Part shown: positions 13,375 to 22,195 of the stretch, in pieces
Layout: every line of letters begins with the position of its first letter
Numbering within the stretch: position 1 is the stretch's first letter
Source: Novosphingobium sp. IK01
Lineage (GTDB): Bacteria > Pseudomonadota > Alphaproteobacteria > Sphingomonadales > Sphingomonadaceae
DNA length: 64,000 bases
Direction: 5' to 3'
NCBI RefSeq assembly: GCF_033242265.1
Contig: NZ_BTFW01000001.1
Location: 806,001-870,000 of the forward strand
Notes under the pieces: generated by a model
Told to the model about the DNA's origin: nothing
Database searches by the model: none
Seen by the model: only the letters and a program-made list of their open reading frames with translations
Made by a program: the position numbers and the translations under genes

Positions 13375-13869
13375 TTACGGCTGCGCCCTGATCTCCAGCA
13401 CCTCGATGGCCTCGGCCTTCCCCGCAAAATCGACCCGTTCGCCCTCTTCGGCGCCCATGATCGCGCGCGCCAGCGGCGCGGCATAGGCCAGCAGGCCCGA
13501 GGCCGGATCGGCTTCGTCGTCGCCCACGATGGTCACCACGCGTTCGCGCCCGTTCATCGACAGGCGCACCTGACAGCCGAATTCCACGCTTGTGCCATCG
13601 GGCACGGGCATGACTTGCGCGCTGGCCTGCCGCGTGCGCCAATAGCGCAACTCGCGGCGGATCGCCTTCACGGCCTCGTCCTCGCTGCCGGCTTGCTGCG
13701 CAGGCAATCTGGCCAGAAGATCGGCCAGCCCCGCCTCGCGCCGGGCGACTTCCTCCTGAATCAGCGCGAGGCCGCGAGCGGTCACCAGATTGGGGCCCGG
13801 CGGGATCGGCAGTTCGAAACGCGGCTCGAGATGTTCGTCGTCGCTCTCGCGCCGGAATGCCACGCTCAT
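13375..13869 (-). CDS. GreA/GreB-family transcription elongation factor-like protein
   Basis: A 164-residue protein with an N-terminal extension ('FRRESDDEHLEPRFELPIPP'), a coiled-coil region around 'LIQEEVARREAGLADLLARL', and a C-terminal FKBP-like domain ('VEFGCQVRLSMNGRERVVTI' and following). This is the layout of the sphingomonad and proteobacterial GreA/GreB-like proteins, which bind the RNA polymerase secondary channel. The acidic coil tip is probably near 'GSEDEAVKA'. Whether it stimulates RNA cleavage like GreA or acts otherwise cannot be told. ATG 13869 overlaps the Hsp70 stop by 4 bp (TCAT on the plus strand), so the two are likely coupled. Confidence 0.82.
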   Translation of the reverse strand: MSVAFRRESDDEHLEPRFELPIPPGPNLVTARGLALIQEEVARREAGLADLLARLPAQQAGSEDEAVKAIRRELRYWRTRQASAQVMPVPDGTSVEFGCQVRLSMNGRERVVTIVGDDEADPASGLLAYAAPLARAIMGAEEGERVDFAGKAEAIEVLEIRAQP

Positions 13870-15227
13870 GCCGTGTCTCCCTCGCCCTCGGCTCCATCGC
13901 CGCCGGCGGTCCATTCTTCCATGTCGGGTTCCTCGCCGATCAGCGCAAGCCCGTGGGCAATCGAGGTCAGTTCCTCGCCGCTTTCGATGCGCCCCTCGCC
14001 AAAACGCTCGACGAACAGGCGCCGGACGGCCGGGATCAGCGACGAACCGCCGGTCAGGAAGACATGGTCGACCTCGTGCGCGGCGACACCGGCACGGGCC
14101 AGCGCGACATCGACGGTCTGGGCGATCCGCTCCAGATCAGGGGCGATCCAGCTCTCGAACTCGGCGCGGGTCACCTGCGCATGGAGCGTCAGGTTCTCGT
14201 TCTCGAAGGCGAGCGTCGCATTTTCCTCGCCCGAAAGCGCGCGCTTGAGGCGGCCCACCGCCTCATAGAGCGGATAGCCCAGTTCCTTGTCGACGACCGC
14301 GATCATGCGGTCGATGGCTGCCGGATCGGTCGCCGCACGGCGCAGGCGGGCCAGTTCCTCCAGCGTGCGCCGGTTGCGCATCAGGGCCAGACGCGACCAG
14401 TCGCCGAAATCGGTGAAATGCCCGTCGGGAATGTCGACCAGCTTGTCGAACGAACGATAGGTGCCGCCCTTGCCCAGGATCGGCAGGACCAGCTTGTCCA
14501 TGATGCGGTAATCGAACCGGTCCCCGGCCAGCCCGATCCCCGCCGAGCCAAGCGGCTGGCAGCGACGCGCCGTGCCCGCCGGCGCCACCCGCACGAGCGA
14601 GAAGTCGCTCGTACCGCCGCCGAAGTCGGCCACCAGCAGCGTGGCCGCGCGCGACAGGCGCCGGGCAAAGCTGAACGCTGCCCCCAGCGGTTCGTAGACA
14701 TAGTGCACCGGGCGCCCGAGGCTGGCGAACATCGCGTCATAGCGCCTGCGCGCAAGCGCCTCGTCGGGCCGGGCGCCGACAAAGCGCACCGGACGCCCGA
14801 CGACGACCCGTGCGGGCAGGCTGGCCAGCGCCTGCCCGCCACAGCGCACCAGATGGCGCAGGAAAATCTCGCCCAGTTCCTCGAACCGCAGGCGCTTCTC
14901 GAACAGGTTCGCGTGCTCGAATGTCGGGCTTGCCGCCACCGACTTGAACGACTGGAGAAAGCGGCTCCCTTGCGGAAAATCGAGAAATTCGGCGATGGCC
15001 CAGGGACCGGCGGCATGGGCCAGACTGCCTCGCGGACCATCGTCCTGCCAGAAGCACAGCGCCGTGCGAAAGACCTTCGCGAGGCCTTCGGGCGTGGTGA
15101 AATCGACTAGGGCGGCGTCGGGCACCCCTTCGGGACCGGCCATGCTGCGCGCGATGACCGAATTGGTAGTGCCGAAGTCGATCCCGACCGCTCCGGGTGC
15201 CGGCGAGTGAGCGGCCATGGACGCCAT
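13866..15227 (-). CDS. YegD-like Hsp70-family protein without a substrate-binding domain
   Basis: A 453-residue actin-fold ATPase. The Hsp70 phosphate-1 loop is 'GIDFGTTNSVIA' (about residues 15-26), phosphate-2 is 'LVADFGGGTSDFSLV', and the adenosine loop is 'VFLTGGSSLIPAVRRLF' near the C-terminus. After the nucleotide-binding domain only an acidic tail remains, so the beta-sandwich and lid of DnaK are missing, as in YegD-type proteins. The client and partner are unknown. The start is ATG 15227, with ATG 15218 possible. It is transcribed into the Gre-type gene with a 4-bp overlap, and divergently from the SRAP-like gene. Confidence 0.87.
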   Translation of the reverse strand: MASMAAHSPAPGAVGIDFGTTNSVIARSMAGPEGVPDAALVDFTTPEGLAKVFRTALCFWQDDGPRGSLAHAAGPWAIAEFLDFPQGSRFLQSFKSVAASPTFEHANLFEKRLRFEELGEIFLRHLVRCGGQALASLPARVVVGRPVRFVGARPDEALARRRYDAMFASLGRPVHYVYEPLGAAFSFARRLSRAATLLVADFGGGTSDFSLVRVAPAGTARRCQPLGSAGIGLAGDRFDYRIMDKLVLPILGKGGTYRSFDKLVDIPDGHFTDFGDWSRLALMRNRRTLEELARLRRAATDPAAIDRMIAVVDKELGYPLYEAVGRLKRALSGEENATLAFENENLTLHAQVTRAEFESWIAPDLERIAQTVDVALARAGVAAHEVDHVFLTGGSSLIPAVRRLFVERFGEGRIESGEELTSIAHGLALIGEEPDMEEWTAGGDGAEGEGDTA

Positions 15228-15344
15228 CTTCCTATCTCCTCTTCAGGGCGGGGGCCTATGACAGGGGCCGGCCACCTGTGCAAGCAACGGATGGGACTGG
15301 AATGCGGGTGGACAGAACACCGGTTCGGCGCGCAAAAGCCCGCG

Positions 15345-15944
15345 ATGCCCGTTTCCTACACACTCGACGCCAGTGCCCAAGCGATTGGCCGGGCGCTGAA
15401 CGCCGATCCGGCGGGCGATGTCTGGTCAGGCGGGACACTCCACGCCGGAAGCTATGCCCCGGTCGTGCTGCGCGGGAGCGACGGGCGCCGACGCCTCCTC
15501 CCCCGCCAATGGGGCGTGCCCCCGCCACCGCCGCACACCATGGCCACGCGCCATGTCGTCACCACCTTGCGCAATATCGAAAGCCCGTTCTGGATCGGCA
15601 CCTTGCGCCACCCGCGCATGCGCTGCCTGGTCCCCGCGACTCACTTTCTGGCAAGCCGTCCCCGCCACGGCGCCCCGCGCTGGTGGGCCGCCGCGCCGCA
15701 GGAAGGCGGGGATGGCGCGATCATGGCCTTTGCCGGGGTCTGGCGCGATTCCGAAGTGCCCAGCTTTGCCATTGTCACCGTTGCGCCCGATGACCTCTCG
15801 GGCCCGGACGACCTGCCCGCCGTGGTGCCCCTTGTGCTCTCGCCCGCCGAACAGGAGCGCTGGCTCACGCAGGAATGGAGCAAGGCCGAAGCCCTGGTGC
15901 GCCCCCTTCATCCCGACCGGATCCGCCCCCTTGGCACGCCCTGA
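15345..15944 (+). CDS. SRAP (YedK/HMCES-like, DUF159) family protein with altered active site
   Basis: A 199-residue protein aligned by eye with SRAP proteins, which cap abasic sites in single-stranded DNA through Cys2. Matching blocks are 'SYTL' at the N-terminus, 'RQWGVP' (54-59), 'RCLVPATHF' (93-101) and 'IMAFAGVWRD' (126-135). The expected catalytic residues are missing. Cys2 is Pro2 from ATG 15345, the NARAE block reads 'TLRNIES', the Glu of GFYEW is replaced in 'HFLAS', and no His is seen where HDRMP should be. An upstream ATG at 15291 would add a Cys-containing leader but does not restore MCGR. It may be a non-catalytic DNA binder or a decaying paralogue. Confidence 0.68.
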   Translation: MPVSYTLDASAQAIGRALNADPAGDVWSGGTLHAGSYAPVVLRGSDGRRRLLPRQWGVPPPPPHTMATRHVVTTLRNIESPFWIGTLRHPRMRCLVPATHFLASRPRHGAPRWWAAAPQEGGDGAIMAFAGVWRDSEVPSFAIVTVAPDDLSGPDDLPAVVPLVLSPAEQERWLTQEWSKAEALVRPLHPDRIRPLGTP

Positions 15945-16303: not shown

Positions 16304-17314
16304 ATGAAACTGGACTTCATGCATCAGGGCGGCGGAGTGACCAAGCTCCATGCCAGGGACTTCGCGCCCAGCGAGGACAACCATCCGATCCCGCGGGTCG
16401 GGGTGATCAGCAACCCGCGCAGCCACCGCAATCGCGGGCGGGCGCGCCCTACGGCCCTGCCCGAAGCCTATGTGATCAAACGCGAGCCTTCGTCCCGCAA
16501 CGAATTGATGAGCGTTCTCACGCAGTTCGTCAACGAAGGAGTCGAACTGATCGTCATCGACGGTGGCGACGGGACCGTGCGCGATGTGCTCAGCGTCGCC
16601 CATGGCGTCTACCGTGGCAAGTTGCCGCGCATCGCGGTGATCCCCTCGGGCAAGACCAATGCCCTCACCTACGATCTGGGCCTGCCCTCGCACTGGAACC
16701 TGGGCGATGCCATCGCGGCCCATGCGGCCGACCACACGATCGACCGCGCGCCGATCCACATCCACTGGAACAACAACGCCCTTCCCGACCAGCTCGGCTT
16801 CATCTTCGGCCTCGGCGTGTTCAGCCGCGCCACGATGCTCGCCCAGAACGTCCACCGCAAGGGGCTGTTCAATGGCGTGGCGGTGTTCTTCACACTGGCC
16901 ATGGCCTTCCTCAAGAGCCTGTTCGGCGGTGATCGCAACAGCTGGCGGCGCGGCGACATGGCGCGTGTCTCGCGCAACGGGGTCGAGATCTTTGCCGAAC
17001 GCGTCTACCTGATCCTCGCCTCGACCTTGCGAAAAATGCCCGCCGGGCTGCGCCCGTTCGGACGGGTGCGCGACGGGCTCAAGTTCCTGACCGTCAAGGC
17101 GCCCCCCCGTGCGCTGGCGCGCAATATCCTGCCGGTGCTGACCGGGGCGGAAACCCCCGAACTGGAGGCCGACGGCTATCTGCGCCGCGATGCCGACCGT
17201 ATCTACCTCTCGCTCGACCGCAGCTTCATCCTCGATGGCGAGCAGTTCCCCGGTGGCAACCTGATCGTCAGCCGGGGCGAACCGATCCACTTCGTGGTCC
17301 CGGCCAATGCTTGA
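16304..17314 (+). CDS. Diacylglycerol-kinase-family lipid kinase
   Basis: A 336-residue protein with the NAD-kinase/DAGK fold. It has 'ISNPRS' (about 35-40), the nucleotide-binding 'GGDGTV' (87-92) and 'IPSGKTNALTYDLGLP' (113-128), which replaces the common GTGND motif. It should phosphorylate a membrane lipid hydroxyl such as diacylglycerol, ceramide or a related lipid with ATP. Caulobacter uses a DAGK-family enzyme (CpgB) as ceramide kinase, so ceramide is a plausible substrate in a sphingolipid-making order. Specificity cannot be read from sequence. ATG 16304 is used, with ATG 16319 possible. The stop overlaps the next gene by 8 bp, implying an operon with two nucleotidyltransferase-like genes. 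Confidence 0.85.
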   Translation: MKLDFMHQGGGVTKLHARDFAPSEDNHPIPRVGVISNPRSHRNRGRARPTALPEAYVIKREPSSRNELMSVLTQFVNEGVELIVIDGGDGTVRDVLSVAHGVYRGKLPRIAVIPSGKTNALTYDLGLPSHWNLGDAIAAHAADHTIDRAPIHIHWNNNALPDQLGFIFGLGVFSRATMLAQNVHRKGLFNGVAVFFTLAMAFLKSLFGGDRNSWRRGDMARVSRNGVEIFAERVYLILASTLRKMPAGLRPFGRVRDGLKFLTVKAPPRALARNILPVLTGAETPELEADGYLRRDADRIYLSLDRSFILDGEQFPGGNLIVSRGEPIHFVVPANA

Positions 17315-18218
17315 ACGCGCACTGGACGCCCGGCTTTCACAGCCGGTGCGCCCCGAGATAACGCTGGCCGCCCAGCGCCTTGCCGCTGATCTGGGTGGCG
17401 ATGCCGTGCTGTTCTATGGCTCCAACCTGCGCCGGGGCGATCTGGAGGGCGTGGTCGATTTCTACGTGCTGCGCCGCCGCCCGGCGCGCGGGATCAGCGC
17501 GGTGATCTGGCCCGACGTGGGCTATCATGAAATTCCTGTCGACGGGCAGACCGTGCGCGCCAAAGTGGCCGTCATGTCGCTCGGCCAGTTTCGCCGCGCC
17601 GCCGCCGGACGCGGCATCGACACGACCATCTGGACCCGTTTCTGCCAACCGGCGCGCCTGCTGATGGCCAGCGACGGCGCCATGCACAAGGCCGTCGTGG
17701 CCGGGCTGGCCGATGCCATGGCAACCGCCGCGCGCTTTGCCCTCGCGCTCGGGCCCGCCACGGGACAGGCGCAGGACTGGTGGCTGGCCCTGTTCCGCGA
17801 GACCTACCGCGCCGAACTGCGCGTCGAGCGCCAGTCGCGCGCCGACAGCGTTCTGGCTGCCGATCCCGAACACTATCGCACCCTGTTGCCGCTGGCCTGG
17901 GAATGGCTGGGCGTGCCTTTCACCCGGACCGGCGAGACCTTCGCCCCGCAGGTCGATCCGCAGCGGCTGGCCGCCTGGCGCCGGGCCTGGGCCTTGCGGC
18001 GCGCGCTCGGGCGCCCGCTCAATGTCGTGCGCCTGATCAAGGCCGCCTTCACATTTGCCGGGGCCACCCGCTATGCCCTGTGGAAGATCGAACGCCACAG
18101 CGGCATTCATATCCCCCTGACCCCATGGCGGGAAAAGCACCCGATCCTGGCCGCGCCTGCGGTTCTCGCCCGCCTCTGGCTGGCCCGCCGTCAGGACAAG
18201 GCGCCAAGGCAGGCCTGA
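17307..18218 (+). CDS. Tam41-like nucleotidyltransferase (possible lipid-phosphate cytidylyltransferase)
   Basis: A 303-residue soluble protein. An N-terminal nucleotidyltransferase signature is visible: 'LFYGSNLRRGDLEGVVDFYV', with Gly38-Ser39 and Asp51. Further blocks resemble mitochondrial Tam41 (CTP:phosphatidate cytidylyltransferase): 'RAKVAVMSLGQF', 'WTRFCQPARLL', and 'TYRAELRVERQSRADSVL' followed by 'EHYRTLLP'. Tam41 makes CDP-diacylglycerol without transmembrane segments. If the similarity holds, this enzyme would activate the product of the kinase upstream, with which it overlaps by 8 bp. The assignment is by eye; a divergent relative of other function is possible. The MobA-like gene follows 47 bp later. 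Confidence 0.6.
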   Translation: MLERALDARLSQPVRPEITLAAQRLAADLGGDAVLFYGSNLRRGDLEGVVDFYVLRRRPARGISAVIWPDVGYHEIPVDGQTVRAKVAVMSLGQFRRAAAGRGIDTTIWTRFCQPARLLMASDGAMHKAVVAGLADAMATAARFALALGPATGQAQDWWLALFRETYRAELRVERQSRADSVLAADPEHYRTLLPLAWEWLGVPFTRTGETFAPQVDPQRLAAWRRAWALRRALGRPLNVVRLIKAAFTFAGATRYALWKIERHSGIHIPLTPWREKHPILAAPAVLARLWLARRQDKAPRQA

Positions 18219-18265
18219 AGCGCCCCTTCTGTCTGATCGCAACTTCGAGCAGGAAAACATTGAAC

Positions 18266-19015
18266 ATGAGCGGTTTTTCGGCACTGGTCCTCGCCGGATC
18301 GCGGCCCGGCCCCGATCCCGTGGCGCAAGTCGCCGGTGTCGCCACCAAAGTTCTGGCAACCGTTGGCGGAAAGCCCATGCTCACCCGCGTGATCGCTGCC
18401 CTGCGGGCCGCCGGGGCCACGCGCATCGCCGTTGCCGCCTCGCACCCGCAAGTCGTGGCGCTGGCCCGGTCGCTGGGCTGCGAAGTGATCGAAGCCGCCG
18501 ATGGGCCGAGCGAGAGCGCCGGGCGCGGCTTTGCCCTGCTGGGCGCGCCGATGCTGCTGACCACCGCCGATCACGCCCTGCTCGAAGGCGAATGGATCAC
18601 CGATTTCCGCGCCGCCATCGCCCCGCAGACCGATGTCGCGGTCCTGCTCGCCCGCCGCGATGTCGTCGAGGCCGCCGTGCCCGATACCCGGCGCACCTGG
18701 CTGCGTTTTGCCGACGGGCAGTGGTCGGGCTGCAACCTGTTCCACTTCGCCACCCCGCGCGCGGCGGCGGCTTTTTCGCTGTGGCAGGCGGTCGAGCGTG
18801 ACCGCAAGCACCCCTGGCGGATCGTCCGCCGCCTCGGCCCCTGGCTGCTGCTGCGCTATCTGGCCGGGCGCCTCTCGCTCGCCGATGCCATGGCCCATCT
18901 GGGCCGCAAGGCGGGGGTCGTCGTCGAGGCCGTGGCCAGCCCGCATGGCCTCGCCGCCGTCGATGTCGACAAGCCCGACGACCTCACCCTGGCCCGCCGG
19001 ATCGCCGGGCAATAA
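18266..19015 (+). CDS. MobA-like NTP transferase
   Basis: A 249-residue glycosyltransferase-A-fold nucleotidyltransferase. The N-terminal signature is 'ALVLAGSRPG' followed by 'ATKVLATVGGKPML', equivalent to the LAGG-x-GxR-x-K loop of MobA and sugar or alcohol nucleotidyltransferases. 'LLTTADHALL' matches the metal-binding Asp strand, and 'VDVDKPDDL' near the C-terminus is typical for the family. It should transfer a nucleotide from CTP, GTP or another NTP to a phosphorylated small molecule. The context of lipid kinase and Tam41-like protein suggests activation of a head group rather than molybdopterin. ATG 18266 has 'agga' 11 bp upstream. The stop lies 17 bp from the convergent flippase gene. 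Confidence 0.8.
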   Translation: MSGFSALVLAGSRPGPDPVAQVAGVATKVLATVGGKPMLTRVIAALRAAGATRIAVAASHPQVVALARSLGCEVIEAADGPSESAGRGFALLGAPMLLTTADHALLEGEWITDFRAAIAPQTDVAVLLARRDVVEAAVPDTRRTWLRFADGQWSGCNLFHFATPRAAAAFSLWQAVERDRKHPWRIVRRLGPWLLLRYLAGRLSLADAMAHLGRKAGVVVEAVASPHGLAAVDVDKPDDLTLARRIAGQ

Positions 19016-19032
19016 GCTTCAGGCCTGCATGA

Positions 19033-20364
19033 TCAGACTGGGGCCTGCGCGTCGAGGCCATGGCGCATGGCATAGTGCCAGAGCACCGCACCAAGGGTCA
19101 GGCTGGCCGCAACCGCGCCGACAAAGACACTGATGCTGGCCCCCAGCGCCCCGATGCGCGGCAGCAGGACCAGCATGAGCCCCAGTTGCAGGGCCACCGC
19201 CACCCCGCGCGCCACGGTTGCCGAAAGCGCGCGGTGGACCGAAAGCAGGATGGGCTCGAAACTGGCCGCCGCCAGTTCGATGGCCCCGGCCCCGGCCAGC
19301 CAGAGCAGATAGATATAGCCGGCGCCAAAAGCATGGCCGCCCACCAGCATCAGCAAGCGATGCCCGAACAGCGCGACCACCCCGATCACCACGCCCGCCG
19401 CCGCGATCGAGGCCAGCCCCACCCGCAAGACCCCCATGCGGAATCGCGCGCGCGAGGCGCTGCGGATCGTGCGGACGATCTCGGGAAAGGCGGCCCGCGT
19501 CACCAGGATCGACAGCTTGGACAGGGCATTGGCCAATTGCGCGGCCAGACGGAAGGCGCCCGCCGCCGCCGGCCCGGCAAACCCGCCCACCAGCAGGAGC
19601 GGGGCCTGCCGGGCGGCCAGCCCCAGCGTCGACTGGCCGTTGGTACTGGCCAGAATGCGCAGCATGCCCGGATTTTCAGCGCGCACTTCGCGCAGCGAAC
19701 CACGGGCCGCCAGCATCGGGCCGACATCGCCGGTCTGGGCGGCCAGCGCCCATGTCGCCAGCAGCGTGAGGACTTCGGCGAGCGCCCAGGCGCTCAGGAA
19801 CCCGGCCAGCGTGGGCATCAGGGCTTGCGCCAGACAGGCTCCGATCAACCGCCCGACCGGCTGGACGCTGTCGGCCAGCGCAGCCAGACGGAACCGGTCG
19901 CGCATGCGCAGGATGCCCGTGGGGGTCGAGCGCAAGGTGATCAACTGGACCACCACATAGCCAAACGCATAAGGCACCAGCGCCGGGTCCATGCCGAACG
20001 GGCGCGGCCAGAGCAGGAACAGCGCCGCAACCAGCCCGATCCCCACCCCCGCGCTCATCAGTTCGACGAAGGCGGCGGCCTGTTCGAGCCGCCAGACCGC
20101 CTCGCGGCGCCCCGCGCCTTCGTGTTCGAGGCCATACTGGACGACGACCTTCCACGTCTCGAAGCTCACCAGCGTCGCAAGGGTCTGCGCCGTCCCGGTG
20201 ATCAGCGCGAAGCGCCCGAAATCGGCCAGTCCGAGCGCGCGCGTGACCATGCCGATATAGACCAGCGAGAGCACCGCCATCAGCGCATTGCTGGCCAGCA
20301 GCCAGCCCAGATTGCGCAGGACAGACTGGAACCGCCCGCTTTTCTTGATGCCATCGGTTTTCAT
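19033..20364 (-). CDS. Polysaccharide/lipid flippase of the Wzx (MOP) type
   Basis: A 443-residue membrane protein with about 12 hydrophobic helices and the N-terminal pattern of lipopolysaccharide-biosynthesis flippases: 'LGWLLASNALMAVLSLVYIG' then 'VTRALGLADFGRFALI'. Proteins of this superfamily move undecaprenyl-linked sugars or lipids across the inner membrane. It overlaps the upstream CDP-glycerol-transferase-like gene by 4 bp, so the two are coupled. It is convergent with the NTP-transferase gene. The cargo is unknown, but a product of the neighbouring enzymes is an obvious candidate. Confidence 0.85.
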   Translation of the reverse strand: MKTDGIKKSGRFQSVLRNLGWLLASNALMAVLSLVYIGMVTRALGLADFGRFALITGTAQTLATLVSFETWKVVVQYGLEHEGAGRREAVWRLEQAAAFVELMSAGVGIGLVAALFLLWPRPFGMDPALVPYAFGYVVVQLITLRSTPTGILRMRDRFRLAALADSVQPVGRLIGACLAQALMPTLAGFLSAWALAEVLTLLATWALAAQTGDVGPMLAARGSLREVRAENPGMLRILASTNGQSTLGLAARQAPLLLVGGFAGPAAAGAFRLAAQLANALSKLSILVTRAAFPEIVRTIRSASRARFRMGVLRVGLASIAAAGVVIGVVALFGHRLLMLVGGHAFGAGYIYLLWLAGAGAIELAAASFEPILLSVHRALSATVARGVAVALQLGLMLVLLPRIGALGASISVFVGAVAASLTLGAVLWHYAMRHGLDAQAPV

Positions 20365-21542
20365 GCCGCGCCCGCCAGTTCAACGAGCGCCTCTGCCGCC
20401 CGCTGCGTGGCCGGATGGCCGCTCTCATAGGAGACGGTATCGGCAAAGATCGCCTCCTGCACCGGGCGCAAGGCTTCCTGCCGGGCTTGCGCGCCGGGGA
20501 TCAGGGCTGTCAGCCCGGCGGCATCGCGTGCCACTTCGCCCGCGTCCCACGCCGGATAGCGCCCTTCGCGCGAGCGGGGATCGTCGGAAAAGACATCGAG
20601 GAACAGCAAGGGGCGCGGATGAACGAGGAACTCGTAGATCTGGCTCGACACGTCACCGATATAGCCGTCGGCGGAAAGGGTATAGGTCATGTCGACCAGT
20701 CGCGTGCTGCCGGTGTCGATCAGGATATTGGCCGCCTCGTCCCAGCGCGGGGCCAGATCGGGGCGCAGGCGGGCCGTGCGATATTCCAGCGAGACATGCA
20801 GTTTCTTCTTGAAGAGCATGATATGCGGGGCAAAAATGATATTGAAGGCTTGCCCTTCACGCGTCAGGAACCAGTCGAGCAGCGCCGGACCATGATCGTA
20901 CCAGCTCGAAAGCAGCGGATCGAAATGCGGATTGTAGACGAAAACGGGATTGTCGTTTTCAAACAGGCGCTCGCGGCGCGAAAGATCGATGGTGTCGAAC
21001 TTGGGATAGCCGACTACCCGGATCTTTTCGGGGGCTGCCACGCCGCGCGCCACCAGTTCGCGCGCGGTCTTGGCCCCGCTGACCAGAATGCGGTCGAACC
21101 CGCCCTTGTCGGGATGGAACGAGACCATCCGGTCGCCCGAGCCATGGGGCACATAGGCAAAGCGGGCGCCCCTACCCGCCCGGTGCGCCACCTCGTCGCG
21201 GATCGAAAGACATGTGCGCTCGGCGCTGACGACCACCCGCGCGGCATTGATCCGGCCCGCATGATGGCGCAGCCGCATCAGACGGCGCACCGGGGCCACC
21301 TTGTTGGGCAGGGCCAGCGCCGTTTCCAGCCAGCCGGGAAGGCCGATGTCGAGCCAGGTCACCCCGCGCCCGGCTTCCGCGCCCAGGATCGCGGCCACCC
21401 GATCACGGATGGCCGGGGTGGCCGTGGCACACGTCACCGTCAGGCCCGTTCGGCTTTCGTACAGCGCGCGCGCGATACCCGCGATATGCGCCACCTGATG
21501 GGGCGCATCGTGATTGAACAGAAAAAGGACCTCATCCGCCAT
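20361..21542 (-). CDS. CDP-glycerol glycerophosphotransferase-like protein
   Basis: A 393-residue protein with the GT-B-like layout of teichoic-acid polymerase-type transferases. It has 'VPHGSGDRM' (131-139), 'VVGYPKFD' (176-183), a 'YNPHFDP' strand (203-209) and the C-terminal motif 'ADGYIGDVSSQIYEFL' (291-306). That motif parallels the D-x-S-S segment of TagB/TagF enzymes, which transfer glycerol phosphate from CDP-glycerol. No membrane helix is seen. ATG 21542 gives the family-like N-terminus 'DEVLFLFNHDAPHQVAHI'; upstream frame sequence is low-complexity. It is the first gene of a two-gene unit with the flippase. The CDP-linked donor may come from the MobA-like enzyme, which is inference. 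Confidence 0.72.
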   Translation of the reverse strand: MADEVLFLFNHDAPHQVAHIAGIARALYESRTGLTVTCATATPAIRDRVAAILGAEAGRGVTWLDIGLPGWLETALALPNKVAPVRRLMRLRHHAGRINAARVVVSAERTCLSIRDEVAHRAGRGARFAYVPHGSGDRMVSFHPDKGGFDRILVSGAKTARELVARGVAAPEKIRVVGYPKFDTIDLSRRERLFENDNPVFVYNPHFDPLLSSWYDHGPALLDWFLTREGQAFNIIFAPHIMLFKKKLHVSLEYRTARLRPDLAPRWDEAANILIDTGSTRLVDMTYTLSADGYIGDVSSQIYEFLVHPRPLLFLDVFSDDPRSREGRYPAWDAGEVARDAAGLTALIPGAQARQEALRPVQEAIFADTVSYESGHPATQRAAEALVELAGAA

Positions 21543-21640
21543 GATGGTCGCGGTCTCCCAAATCCGCGCCAATTGCAACCTTTTGCTGATGGCTGGCGCC
21601 TCCCCCTGCCCCCGCGCGCCGGCACAGCCCGGAGAACCCG

Positions 21641-22195
21641 ATGAAACCCCACCTGCCCCTTTTCCGCCACCCCGGCCTTGCTTCCAGAGCGGGGCTCGCC
21701 ACGCCTGCTGCCGCCACACTGGCCGCCGCCTTACTGGCCGTGATGGCGAGCGCCCCCTCCCGGGCCGAGACCCGCACCCCCGACCGCACCTGCAAGCCCG
21801 GCCACCCTTCCCTCAGCGTGACCGTGACCGGCTTTTCCGGCACGACCGGCAAAGTGCGGGCCCAGCTCTATGGACCGGGCGGCGAGCATTTCCTCGACAA
21901 GGGGGCGTGGTCGATGCGGATCGAACGCCAGCGCGAAGAGGCCGGCCCCATGCATTTCTGCTTCCCCATCGACCAGCCGGGCCGCTATGCCGTGGCGATC
22001 CGCCACGATGCCAATGTCAACGGCAAGTCGGACTGGAATGATGGCGGCGGCTTTACCGGCAACCCGCGCCTTTCGCTGTTCCACCTCAAGCCCGATTTCG
22101 ACAAGGCCGCCGTGGAAGTGGGCTCGCAACCGGTTCAGGCCAAAATCATCATGCAATATCGACGGGGGCTGTCGATTGGCCCCATCGCCCCTTGA
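21641..22195 (+). CDS. DUF2141-family secreted protein
   Basis: A 184-residue protein with an N-terminal signal peptide (hydrophobic 'AAATLAAALLAVMA' about residues 23-36, likely cut near 'SRAE'). A DUF2141-like domain follows: 'LSVTVTGFSGTTGKVRAQLY', 'PGRYAVAIRHDANVNGKSDW' and 'GGGFTGNPRL'. The Asp/Asn-rich 'HDANVNGKSDWND' loop looks like a calcium site. It is likely periplasmic or outer-membrane associated. Its biochemical role is unknown. It is divergent from the transferase-flippase pair, with 98 bp between starts. A ribosome site 'ggaga' precedes ATG 21641. The same fold is often found near carotenoid or envelope-lipid genes. Confidence 0.82.
   Translation: MKPHLPLFRHPGLASRAGLATPAAATLAAALLAVMASAPSRAETRTPDRTCKPGHPSLSVTVTGFSGTTGKVRAQLYGPGGEHFLDKGAWSMRIERQREEAGPMHFCFPIDQPGRYAVAIRHDANVNGKSDWNDGGGFTGNPRLSLFHLKPDFDKAAVEVGSQPVQAKIIMQYRRGLSIGPIAP

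What the first reader, a model, noticed from the sequence alone, without database searches (positions are those of the whole stretch)
16304..22195. Candidate undescribed lipid-activation and export locus
Six genes fit one envelope pathway: a lipid kinase, a Tam41-like nucleotidyltransferase overlapping it by 8 bp, a MobA-like NTP transferase, a Wzx-type flippase overlapped by a CDP-glycerol-transferase-like gene, and a secreted DUF2141 protein. Read together, a lipid would be phosphorylated and then activated with a nucleotide, joined to a CDP-linked alcohol and flipped outward. Seen: motifs, overlaps and order. Known: DAGK-family enzymes phosphorylate lipids, Tam41 makes CDP-diacylglycerol, and Caulobacter uses a DAGK-family ceramide kinase (CpgB) for anionic sphingolipids. 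Inferred: that these genes act together, possibly on ceramide.
Basis: partly seen in the sequence, partly recalled or inferred. Interest (0 to 1): 0.75.

Follow-up and report, generated by a model that had tools for sequence, protein, structure and literature searches.

The report
Ceramide head-group and export gene cluster
A Novosphingobium-type bacterium carries, side by side, genes that probably put an acidic phosphate-containing head on ceramide lipids and export them; the pathway was already found in Caulobacter, but this locus suggests which parts form its core and what its least understood enzyme does.

The parts
16304..17314 (+). CpgB-type DAGK-family lipid kinase, proposed ceramide kinase
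   Evidence: DAGK_cat 3.3e-12; GGDG invariant in 20 aligned sequences, window included; 44% to the kinase at the CpgB position in C. vibrioides T5M6; only match of that protein in the whole genome at E 0.001 or better, E 2.1e-75
17307..18218 (+). Tam41-like nucleotidyltransferase, CpgC ortholog by position; proposed CTP:ceramide-1-phosphate cytidylyltransferase
18266..19015 (+). MobA/CofC-like NTP transferase, CC_1153 ortholog by position; proposed phosphoglycerate nucleotidyltransferase
   Evidence: NTP_transf_3 6.3e-12; best NCBIfam hit CofC 2.4e-6, far below its cut-off; 52% to the C. vibrioides gene beside CerS; R13, K28, D102, D233, D235 invariant in 19 sequences, window included
19033..20364 (-). 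Wzx-type polysaccharide flippase-like membrane protein; candidate flippase (CC_1166 position)
   Evidence: Polysacc_synt 1.3e-13; 7 hydrophobic segments by a crude scan; 29% over 408 residues to the C. vibrioides gene
20361..21542 (-). TagF/TarL-like GT-B protein; accessory transferase candidate (CC_1167 position)
21641..22195 (+). Probably secreted DUF2141 protein, role unknown
   Evidence: DUF2141 1.5e-19; N-terminal hydrophobic segment; a relative within the fetched flanks in 52 of 80 named loci, 43 of these within 3 kb of the NTase gene

Best explanation
This is the head-group and export part of a phosphosphingolipid (CPG-type) pathway. Proposed steps: (1) kinase: ceramide + ATP -> ceramide-1-phosphate; (2) Tam41-like enzyme: ceramide-1-phosphate + CTP -> CDP-ceramide + PPi; (3) MobA/CofC-like enzyme: NTP + a phosphoglycerate-type acid -> nucleotide-activated acid; (4) a transferase not identified here joins head and lipid; (5) the flippase moves the product across the inner membrane, and the TagF-like and DUF2141 proteins modify it or help export it. 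Ceramide is made by genes elsewhere in the genome. Shown here: gene families, orthology by sequence and position, a predicted Tam41 fold, and co-occurrence. Shown by others in Caulobacter: CpgB activity, and lipid phenotypes of CC_1159/CC_1160, CC_1161 and CC_1153 mutants. Inferred: steps 1-5 in this organism. No CpgA or CpgD ortholog was found, so CPG2 made the Caulobacter way is not expected; a single-head lipid such as CPG is the simplest product.
For: All six families lie in the C. vibrioides T5M6 cluster that runs from an LptC-type gene to the CC_1153-position gene. Relatives of the Caulobacter Spt (51%), AasR (48%) and CerS (42%) genes (named by position) sit elsewhere in the window genome. 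In the same 192 genomes NTase and MobA-like gene: the same 25; all 25 have CerS (30 with CerS in all); Fisher p 7e-32 and 9e-27, kinship ignored. Kinase beside the NTase in 22 of those 25. MobA-like gene within 41 bases of CerS in 20 of 25. Fold match to CTP-bound Tam41 over 222 residues. CpgB is a ceramide kinase; in CC_1161 mutants neither CPG nor CPG2 was detected; CC_1161 bears a CDP-DAG-synthase InterPro label. CofC-type enzymes activate 2-phospholactate, PEP or 3-phosphoglycerate.
Against: No biochemistry for the window proteins. Assignment to CC_ numbers is by gene order, since the fetched record bears no locus tags; CerS in particular was named by position, and Pfam gave it nothing (L083) or only a weak GNAT hit (L084, 0.0096). 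In Caulobacter a CC_1153 mutant still makes CPG and loses CPG2, which fits poorly with a core role. No head-joining transferase was found for genomes without CpgA. The kinase was not seen beside the NTase in 3 of 25 genomes. The TagF-like gene occurs in only 5 of 192 genomes, one of them without the NTase. CC_1157 mutants, possibly the DUF2141 gene, show no high cofitness with the cluster. The NTase is in only 3 of 14 genomes of the own genus. The second LptF/LptG pair of Caulobacter is missing here.
Confidence: 0.72

Rival explanations
1. The kinase and Tam41-like enzyme act on diacylglycerol/phosphatidic acid and serve ordinary phospholipid (CDP-DAG) synthesis.
For: Tam41 makes CDP-DAG in mitochondria, and so does a bacterial Tam41; DAGK-family kinases can act on DAG (family knowledge).
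Against: After weak matches were dropped, the NTase was found only in genomes that also have ceramide synthase (25 of 25 in 192 genomes); it sits in spt/CerS-type clusters in many; the kinase is a CpgB ortholog, and CpgB phosphorylates ceramide.
Confidence: 0.1
2. The + strand trio is a phosphosphingolipid module, but flippase + TagF-like gene belong to an unrelated surface polymer and the DUF2141 gene is a bystander.
For: Flippase and TagF-like families are typical of polysaccharide loci (family knowledge); TagF-like gene in only 5 of 192 genomes; the paper calls CC_1167 and CC_1157 probably unrelated, and CC_1157 mutants show no high cofitness.
Against: Flippase and TagF-like relatives within the fetched flanks of the NTase in 39 and 29 of 80 loci, in rearranged orders; CC_1167 mutants show cofitness 0.57 with spt and 0.54 with CC_1159 in the same paper; DUF2141 near in 52 of 80.
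Confidence: 0.2
3. The MobA-like enzyme acts only in the second head-group step, as the Caulobacter mutant suggests, and has another or no role here.
For: CC_1153 mutants show more CPG and no detectable CPG2.
Against: Same 25 genomes as the NTase, 10 of which lack CpgA and CpgD; next to ceramide synthase in 20 of 25.
Confidence: 0.3

Closest known systems
Caulobacter crescentus ceramide phosphoglycerate (CPG/CPG2) genes CC_1168-CC_1152 (CpgA-D, CC_1153, CC_1158, CC_1166, CC_1167)
   Same: Orthologs by sequence and position of the kinase, CpgC, CC_1153, flippase and CC_1167 genes, plus a DUF2141 gene in the same region
   Different: Here the head-group genes stand apart from the ceramide genes; no CpgA or CpgD ortholog and no second LptF/LptG pair was found in the genome. 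PMC11324152 already describes Zymomonas mobilis as lacking CC_1159 and having scattered genes
Tam41/TAMM41 CDP-diacylglycerol synthase
   Same: Predicted NTase plus second domain as in Tam41; single invariant acidic residue in the NTase part
   Different: 12-15% identity to the solved Tam41 chains; occurs with ceramide genes; no Pfam match of its own
CofC/FbiD phosphohydroxyacid guanylyltransferases
   Same: Best curated NCBIfam profile hit for the MobA-like protein
   Different: Score far below the family cut-off (27.3 of 105 bits); occurs with ceramide synthase; F420 genes were not searched for
TagF/TarL teichoic acid polymerases
   Same: Top structural neighbours
   Different: Single GT-B protein, 12-15% identity; 2-epimerases nearly tied

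Membership tests
CPG phosphosphingolipid locus | CpgB-type kinase gene beside CpgC gene | tested here: met
   8-base overlap in the window; 44% and 54% to the neighbouring C. vibrioides pair
CPG phosphosphingolipid locus | Genome encodes ceramide synthesis (spt, cerS) | tested here: met
   Relatives of the Caulobacter genes at these positions: Spt 51%, CerS 42%, AasR 48%
CPG phosphosphingolipid locus | CpgA and CpgD for the second phosphoglycerate | tested here: not met
   CpgA: no match; CpgD: only a 73-residue match, E 1.2e-11, against 3e-61 or better in the 15 genomes that have it. So not filed as a CPG2 locus
CPG phosphosphingolipid locus | Makes CPG or a related lipid | not testable with these tools
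   Needs lipidomics
Tam41 CDP-DAG synthase | NTase + winged-helix fold with CTP pocket between them | tested here: met
Tam41 CDP-DAG synthase | Only one of the three NTase acidic residues kept | tested here: met
   D51 the only invariant acidic column among residues 1-122 of 28 sequences; criterion from PMC11646218
Tam41 CDP-DAG synthase | Pfam PF09139 membership by sequence | tested here: inconclusive
   1 of 28 aligned sequences hits (7.9e-7); the window protein does not
Tam41 CDP-DAG synthase | Activity with CTP and phosphatidic acid | not testable with these tools
   Needs an enzyme assay
CofC 2-phospho-L-lactate guanylyltransferase | Score over the NCBIfam equivalog cut-off | tested here: not met
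   27.3 against 105 bits
CDP-glycerol glycerophosphotransferase (TagF-like) | Pfam PF04464 over cut-off | tested here: not met
   12 against 22.1 bits
CDP-glycerol glycerophosphotransferase (TagF-like) | TagF fold | tested here: inconclusive
Wzx-type flippase | Polysacc_synt (PF01943) domain with many TM segments | tested here: met
   1.3e-13 over residues 15-298; 7 hydrophobic segments by a crude scan; the NCBIfam Wzx-like model was hit only far below its cut-off (21 of 300 bits)

The most novel reading that the evidence does not exclude
In bacteria without CpgA and CpgD a different chemistry builds the head: the Tam41-like enzyme is a CDP-ceramide synthase, the MobA-like enzyme supplies nucleotide-activated glycerate, and the TagF-like protein adds one or more phosphoglycerate units before a Wzx-type flippase exports the lipid. 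The result would be a ceramide-anchored, teichoic-acid-like molecule in a Gram-negative outer membrane.
Probability: 0.12. Interest if true: 0.85.

Novelty: new member of a known kind. Interest (0 to 1): 0.5.

Why it matters
Anionic sphingolipids help Caulobacter live without lipopolysaccharide and set its polymyxin sensitivity. CpgC is published as acting by an unidentified mechanism, and a 2024 paper says that its authors had not yet identified flippases or transporters for these lipids. This locus names testable candidates for both: CpgC as a Tam41-type CDP-ceramide synthase, and a Wzx-type flippase. The nested distribution (NTase + MobA-like core, separate CpgA + CpgD extension) separates the first head-group step from the second and questions the placing of CC_1153 in the second.

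Tried and rejected
Rejected: the TagF-like gene as the general missing head-group transferase, since it is in only 5 of 192 genomes. Rejected: the MobA-like gene as CpgD; CpgD is a different protein (seen in Caulobacter sp. 602-1, L069, with arginine 16 and lysine 26 as numbered in the paper), and the MobA-like protein matches the CC_1153-position gene (E 2e-64) but that CpgD only by chance (E 6). Rejected: one operon for all six, by strand. Led nowhere: phmmer of the Tam41-like protein against PDB (only stray hits to WD-40 and designed WRAP-T proteins); profile search of PDB (best E 0.28); Rfam on the window (0 matches at gathering score); promoter/terminator and inverted-repeat scans. In one search my guessed reading frame for the Caulobacter flippase was wrong, so that comparison failed; the tblastn value (29%) is used. 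The CerS piece lacks its N-terminus; this affects no count.

Dropped before counts in the 192-genome survey: 2 weak NTase genomes (G041 8e-4, G143 1.1e-4), 6 weak MobA-like genomes (G067, G081, G120, G154, G165, G185; E 1.5e-5 or worse), 1 weak CerS genome (G053, 3.7e-9), and 44 CpgA and 142 CpgD genomes whose matches were much weaker (best dropped E 1.9e-9 and 4.8e-28, worst kept 4.5e-81 and 2.9e-61). G173 was kept as MobA-like on a fragment at a contig end (5e-10). Names of Spt, AasR, CerR and CerS in L083 come from gene order and recall, not from a family scan. Flippase counts are tblastn matches at E 1e-5 and may include other Wzx-type genes.

Paper searches: no paper held both 'CDP-ceramide' and 'bacteria', but an NDP-activated ceramide had been suggested in PMC11324152, so the idea is not new. 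I did not see its supplements, nor Zik et al. 2022.

Full report
What is there. Kinase 16304-17314, Tam41-like 17307-18218 and MobA-like 18266-19015 run on the + strand; the first two overlap by 8 bases. Flippase 19033-20364 and TagF-like 20361-21542 run on the - strand and overlap by 4 bases. DUF2141 21641-22195 is on the + strand. That makes at least three transcription units. Pfam supports kinase, MobA-like, flippase and DUF2141 firmly; the TagF-like match is below threshold and the Tam41-like protein has none.

Where it comes from. The window is in a 3.77-Mb genome of four contigs, rated 100% complete. Its closest named relative among the fetched loci is a metagenome-assembled Novosphingobium capsulatum (SZUA-1509, L029; kinase 98%, the 234 NTase residues on the contig 99%).

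What it is. A scan of genome contigs with an alignment of the Tam41-like protein gave 550 relatives, of which the best 80 were kept, among them Caulobacter vibrioides T5M6 (L083). There all six window families are found within 17 kb, together with LptC-type and LptF/LptG-type genes, a CDP-alcohol phosphotransferase (CpgA position), a metallophosphoesterase and a HIT-domain gene (Pfam), and with genes that I name spt, AasR, CerR and CerS from their order and sequence, not from a family scan. This fits the published order CC_1168-CC_1152 (PMC11324152; outline, sections 8, 9 and 13 and passages seen). There CC_1160 (CpgB) and CC_1161 (CpgC) are needed for ceramide phosphoglycerate, CC_1153 and CC_1152 (CpgD) for CPG2, CC_1166 is a potential flippase, and CC_1167 and CC_1157 are called probably unrelated. 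Whether CC_1157 is the HIT-domain or the DUF2141 gene I could not tell. CpgB is a biochemically shown ceramide kinase (PMC10331486; abstract and one results section) and CpgD a phosphoglycerate cytidylyltransferase (PMC12275187; abstract, results, discussion). A 2026 preprint still gives CpgC an unidentified mechanism (PMC13228409; passages).

Orthology. Window against T5M6: kinase 44%, NTase 54%, MobA-like 52%, TagF-like 35%, DUF2141 32%, flippase 29%. The T5M6 kinase finds only the window kinase in the whole window genome.

Ceramide. The window genome encodes relatives of the Caulobacter Spt (51%), CerS (42%) and AasR (48%) genes at three separate places. Scattered genes in Sphingomonadales are reported in PMC11324152.

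Co-occurrence. The same 192 alphaproteobacterial genomes were searched six times. After dropping weak matches (listed in Tried and rejected), the NTase is in 25, the MobA-like gene in the same 25 (one as a contig-end fragment), CerS in 30 including those 25, CpgA in 15 and CpgD in the same 15, all within the 25. Ten genomes, this one included, have NTase and MobA-like gene without CpgA and CpgD. The p-values ignore kinship. Read by eye, seven families have members with and without the NTase (f1, f23, f27, f41, f55, f76, f78; f41 rests on a dropped weak match), and the MobA-like gene follows it in all seven; CerS is present without the NTase in f1 and f55. The kinase lies beside the NTase in 22 of 25 genomes (not seen in G105, G155, G191), and the MobA-like gene within 41 bases of CerS in 20 of 25. 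In the order, the NTase is in 135 of 197 genomes, but in only 3 of 14 of the own genus.

Linkage in named loci (80, chosen by the NTase; 60 with more than 20 kb held). Kinase 78, DUF2141 52, MobA-like 42 (29 of these directly downstream of the NTase), flippase 39, TagF-like 29; all six in 12, three of them in the window's exact order and the rest rearranged. Misses can be due to short contigs. Re-association in different orders argues for a shared role rather than inherited neighbourhood alone.

The MobA-like enzyme. An arginine, a lysine and three aspartates are invariant in 19 sequences; calling them catalytic is from family knowledge. CofC is its best curated profile, though far below the cut-off, and CofC-type enzymes activate phospholactate, PEP or 3-phosphoglycerate (PMC8498797, passages). 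A phosphoglycerate-activating role is an inference. Against a core role stands the Caulobacter mutant, which makes CPG but no detectable CPG2; partial redundancy with CpgD, which also makes an activated glycerate, could explain this and is untested.

Accessory genes. The TagF-like protein has a GT-B-type fold with TagF and TarL on top, though epimerases are nearly tied. It is in 5 of 192 genomes, 4 with the NTase. CC_1167 mutants have cofitness with spt and CC_1159, which favours a link that the paper discounted; CC_1157 mutants do not. The flippase is a candidate for the sphingolipid flippase that PMC11087976 (passages) had not identified. The genome has one LptF/LptG pair, so the second set of Caulobacter is absent.

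Verdict. A real, functionally coherent locus of a known kind: a phosphosphingolipid head-group and export cluster of the core type, without CpgA and CpgD. New here are the fold evidence for CpgC, the nested core/extension distribution and the recurrent accessory genes. Interest 0.5.

Noticed in passing
L252:14450-15232 and relatives (family 14): A fatty-acid hydroxylase (PF04116, 1.1e-20) has relatives in 13 of the 23 locus sets compared, near the sphingolipid genes; the sections that I read of PMC11324152 do not list it among the 17 genes. Possible ceramide hydroxylase.
   Followed up: partly
L042:4375-5088 and relatives (family 25): A HAD phosphatase (PF12710, 7.9e-27) sits directly beside a TagF-like gene in L042; its family is in 12 of the 80 sequences compared (79 named loci plus the window). 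It could do the job of the Caulobacter metallophosphoesterase CC_1158.
   Followed up: partly
L083:1-1643 against L069:855-1727: Caulobacter vibrioides T5M6 shows no cpgD-like gene in the stretch held beside the CC_1153-position gene, where Caulobacter sp. 602-1 has one.
   Followed up: no
G029, G137, G139, G155 clusters: Second (in G029 and G139 also third) CpgA-like CDP-alcohol phosphotransferases lie near the sphingolipid genes, suggesting further head-group diversity.
   Followed up: no
L035, L042, L046, L073, L087, L090, L095, L097: Eight Sphingomonas loci carry two adjacent TagF-like genes.
   Followed up: no
window 13866-15227 (-), 15207-15944 (+): Upstream neighbours look by eye like an Hsp70-type protein and a YedK/HMCES-type protein (named from memory, not scanned); no link to lipids is apparent.
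   Followed up: no
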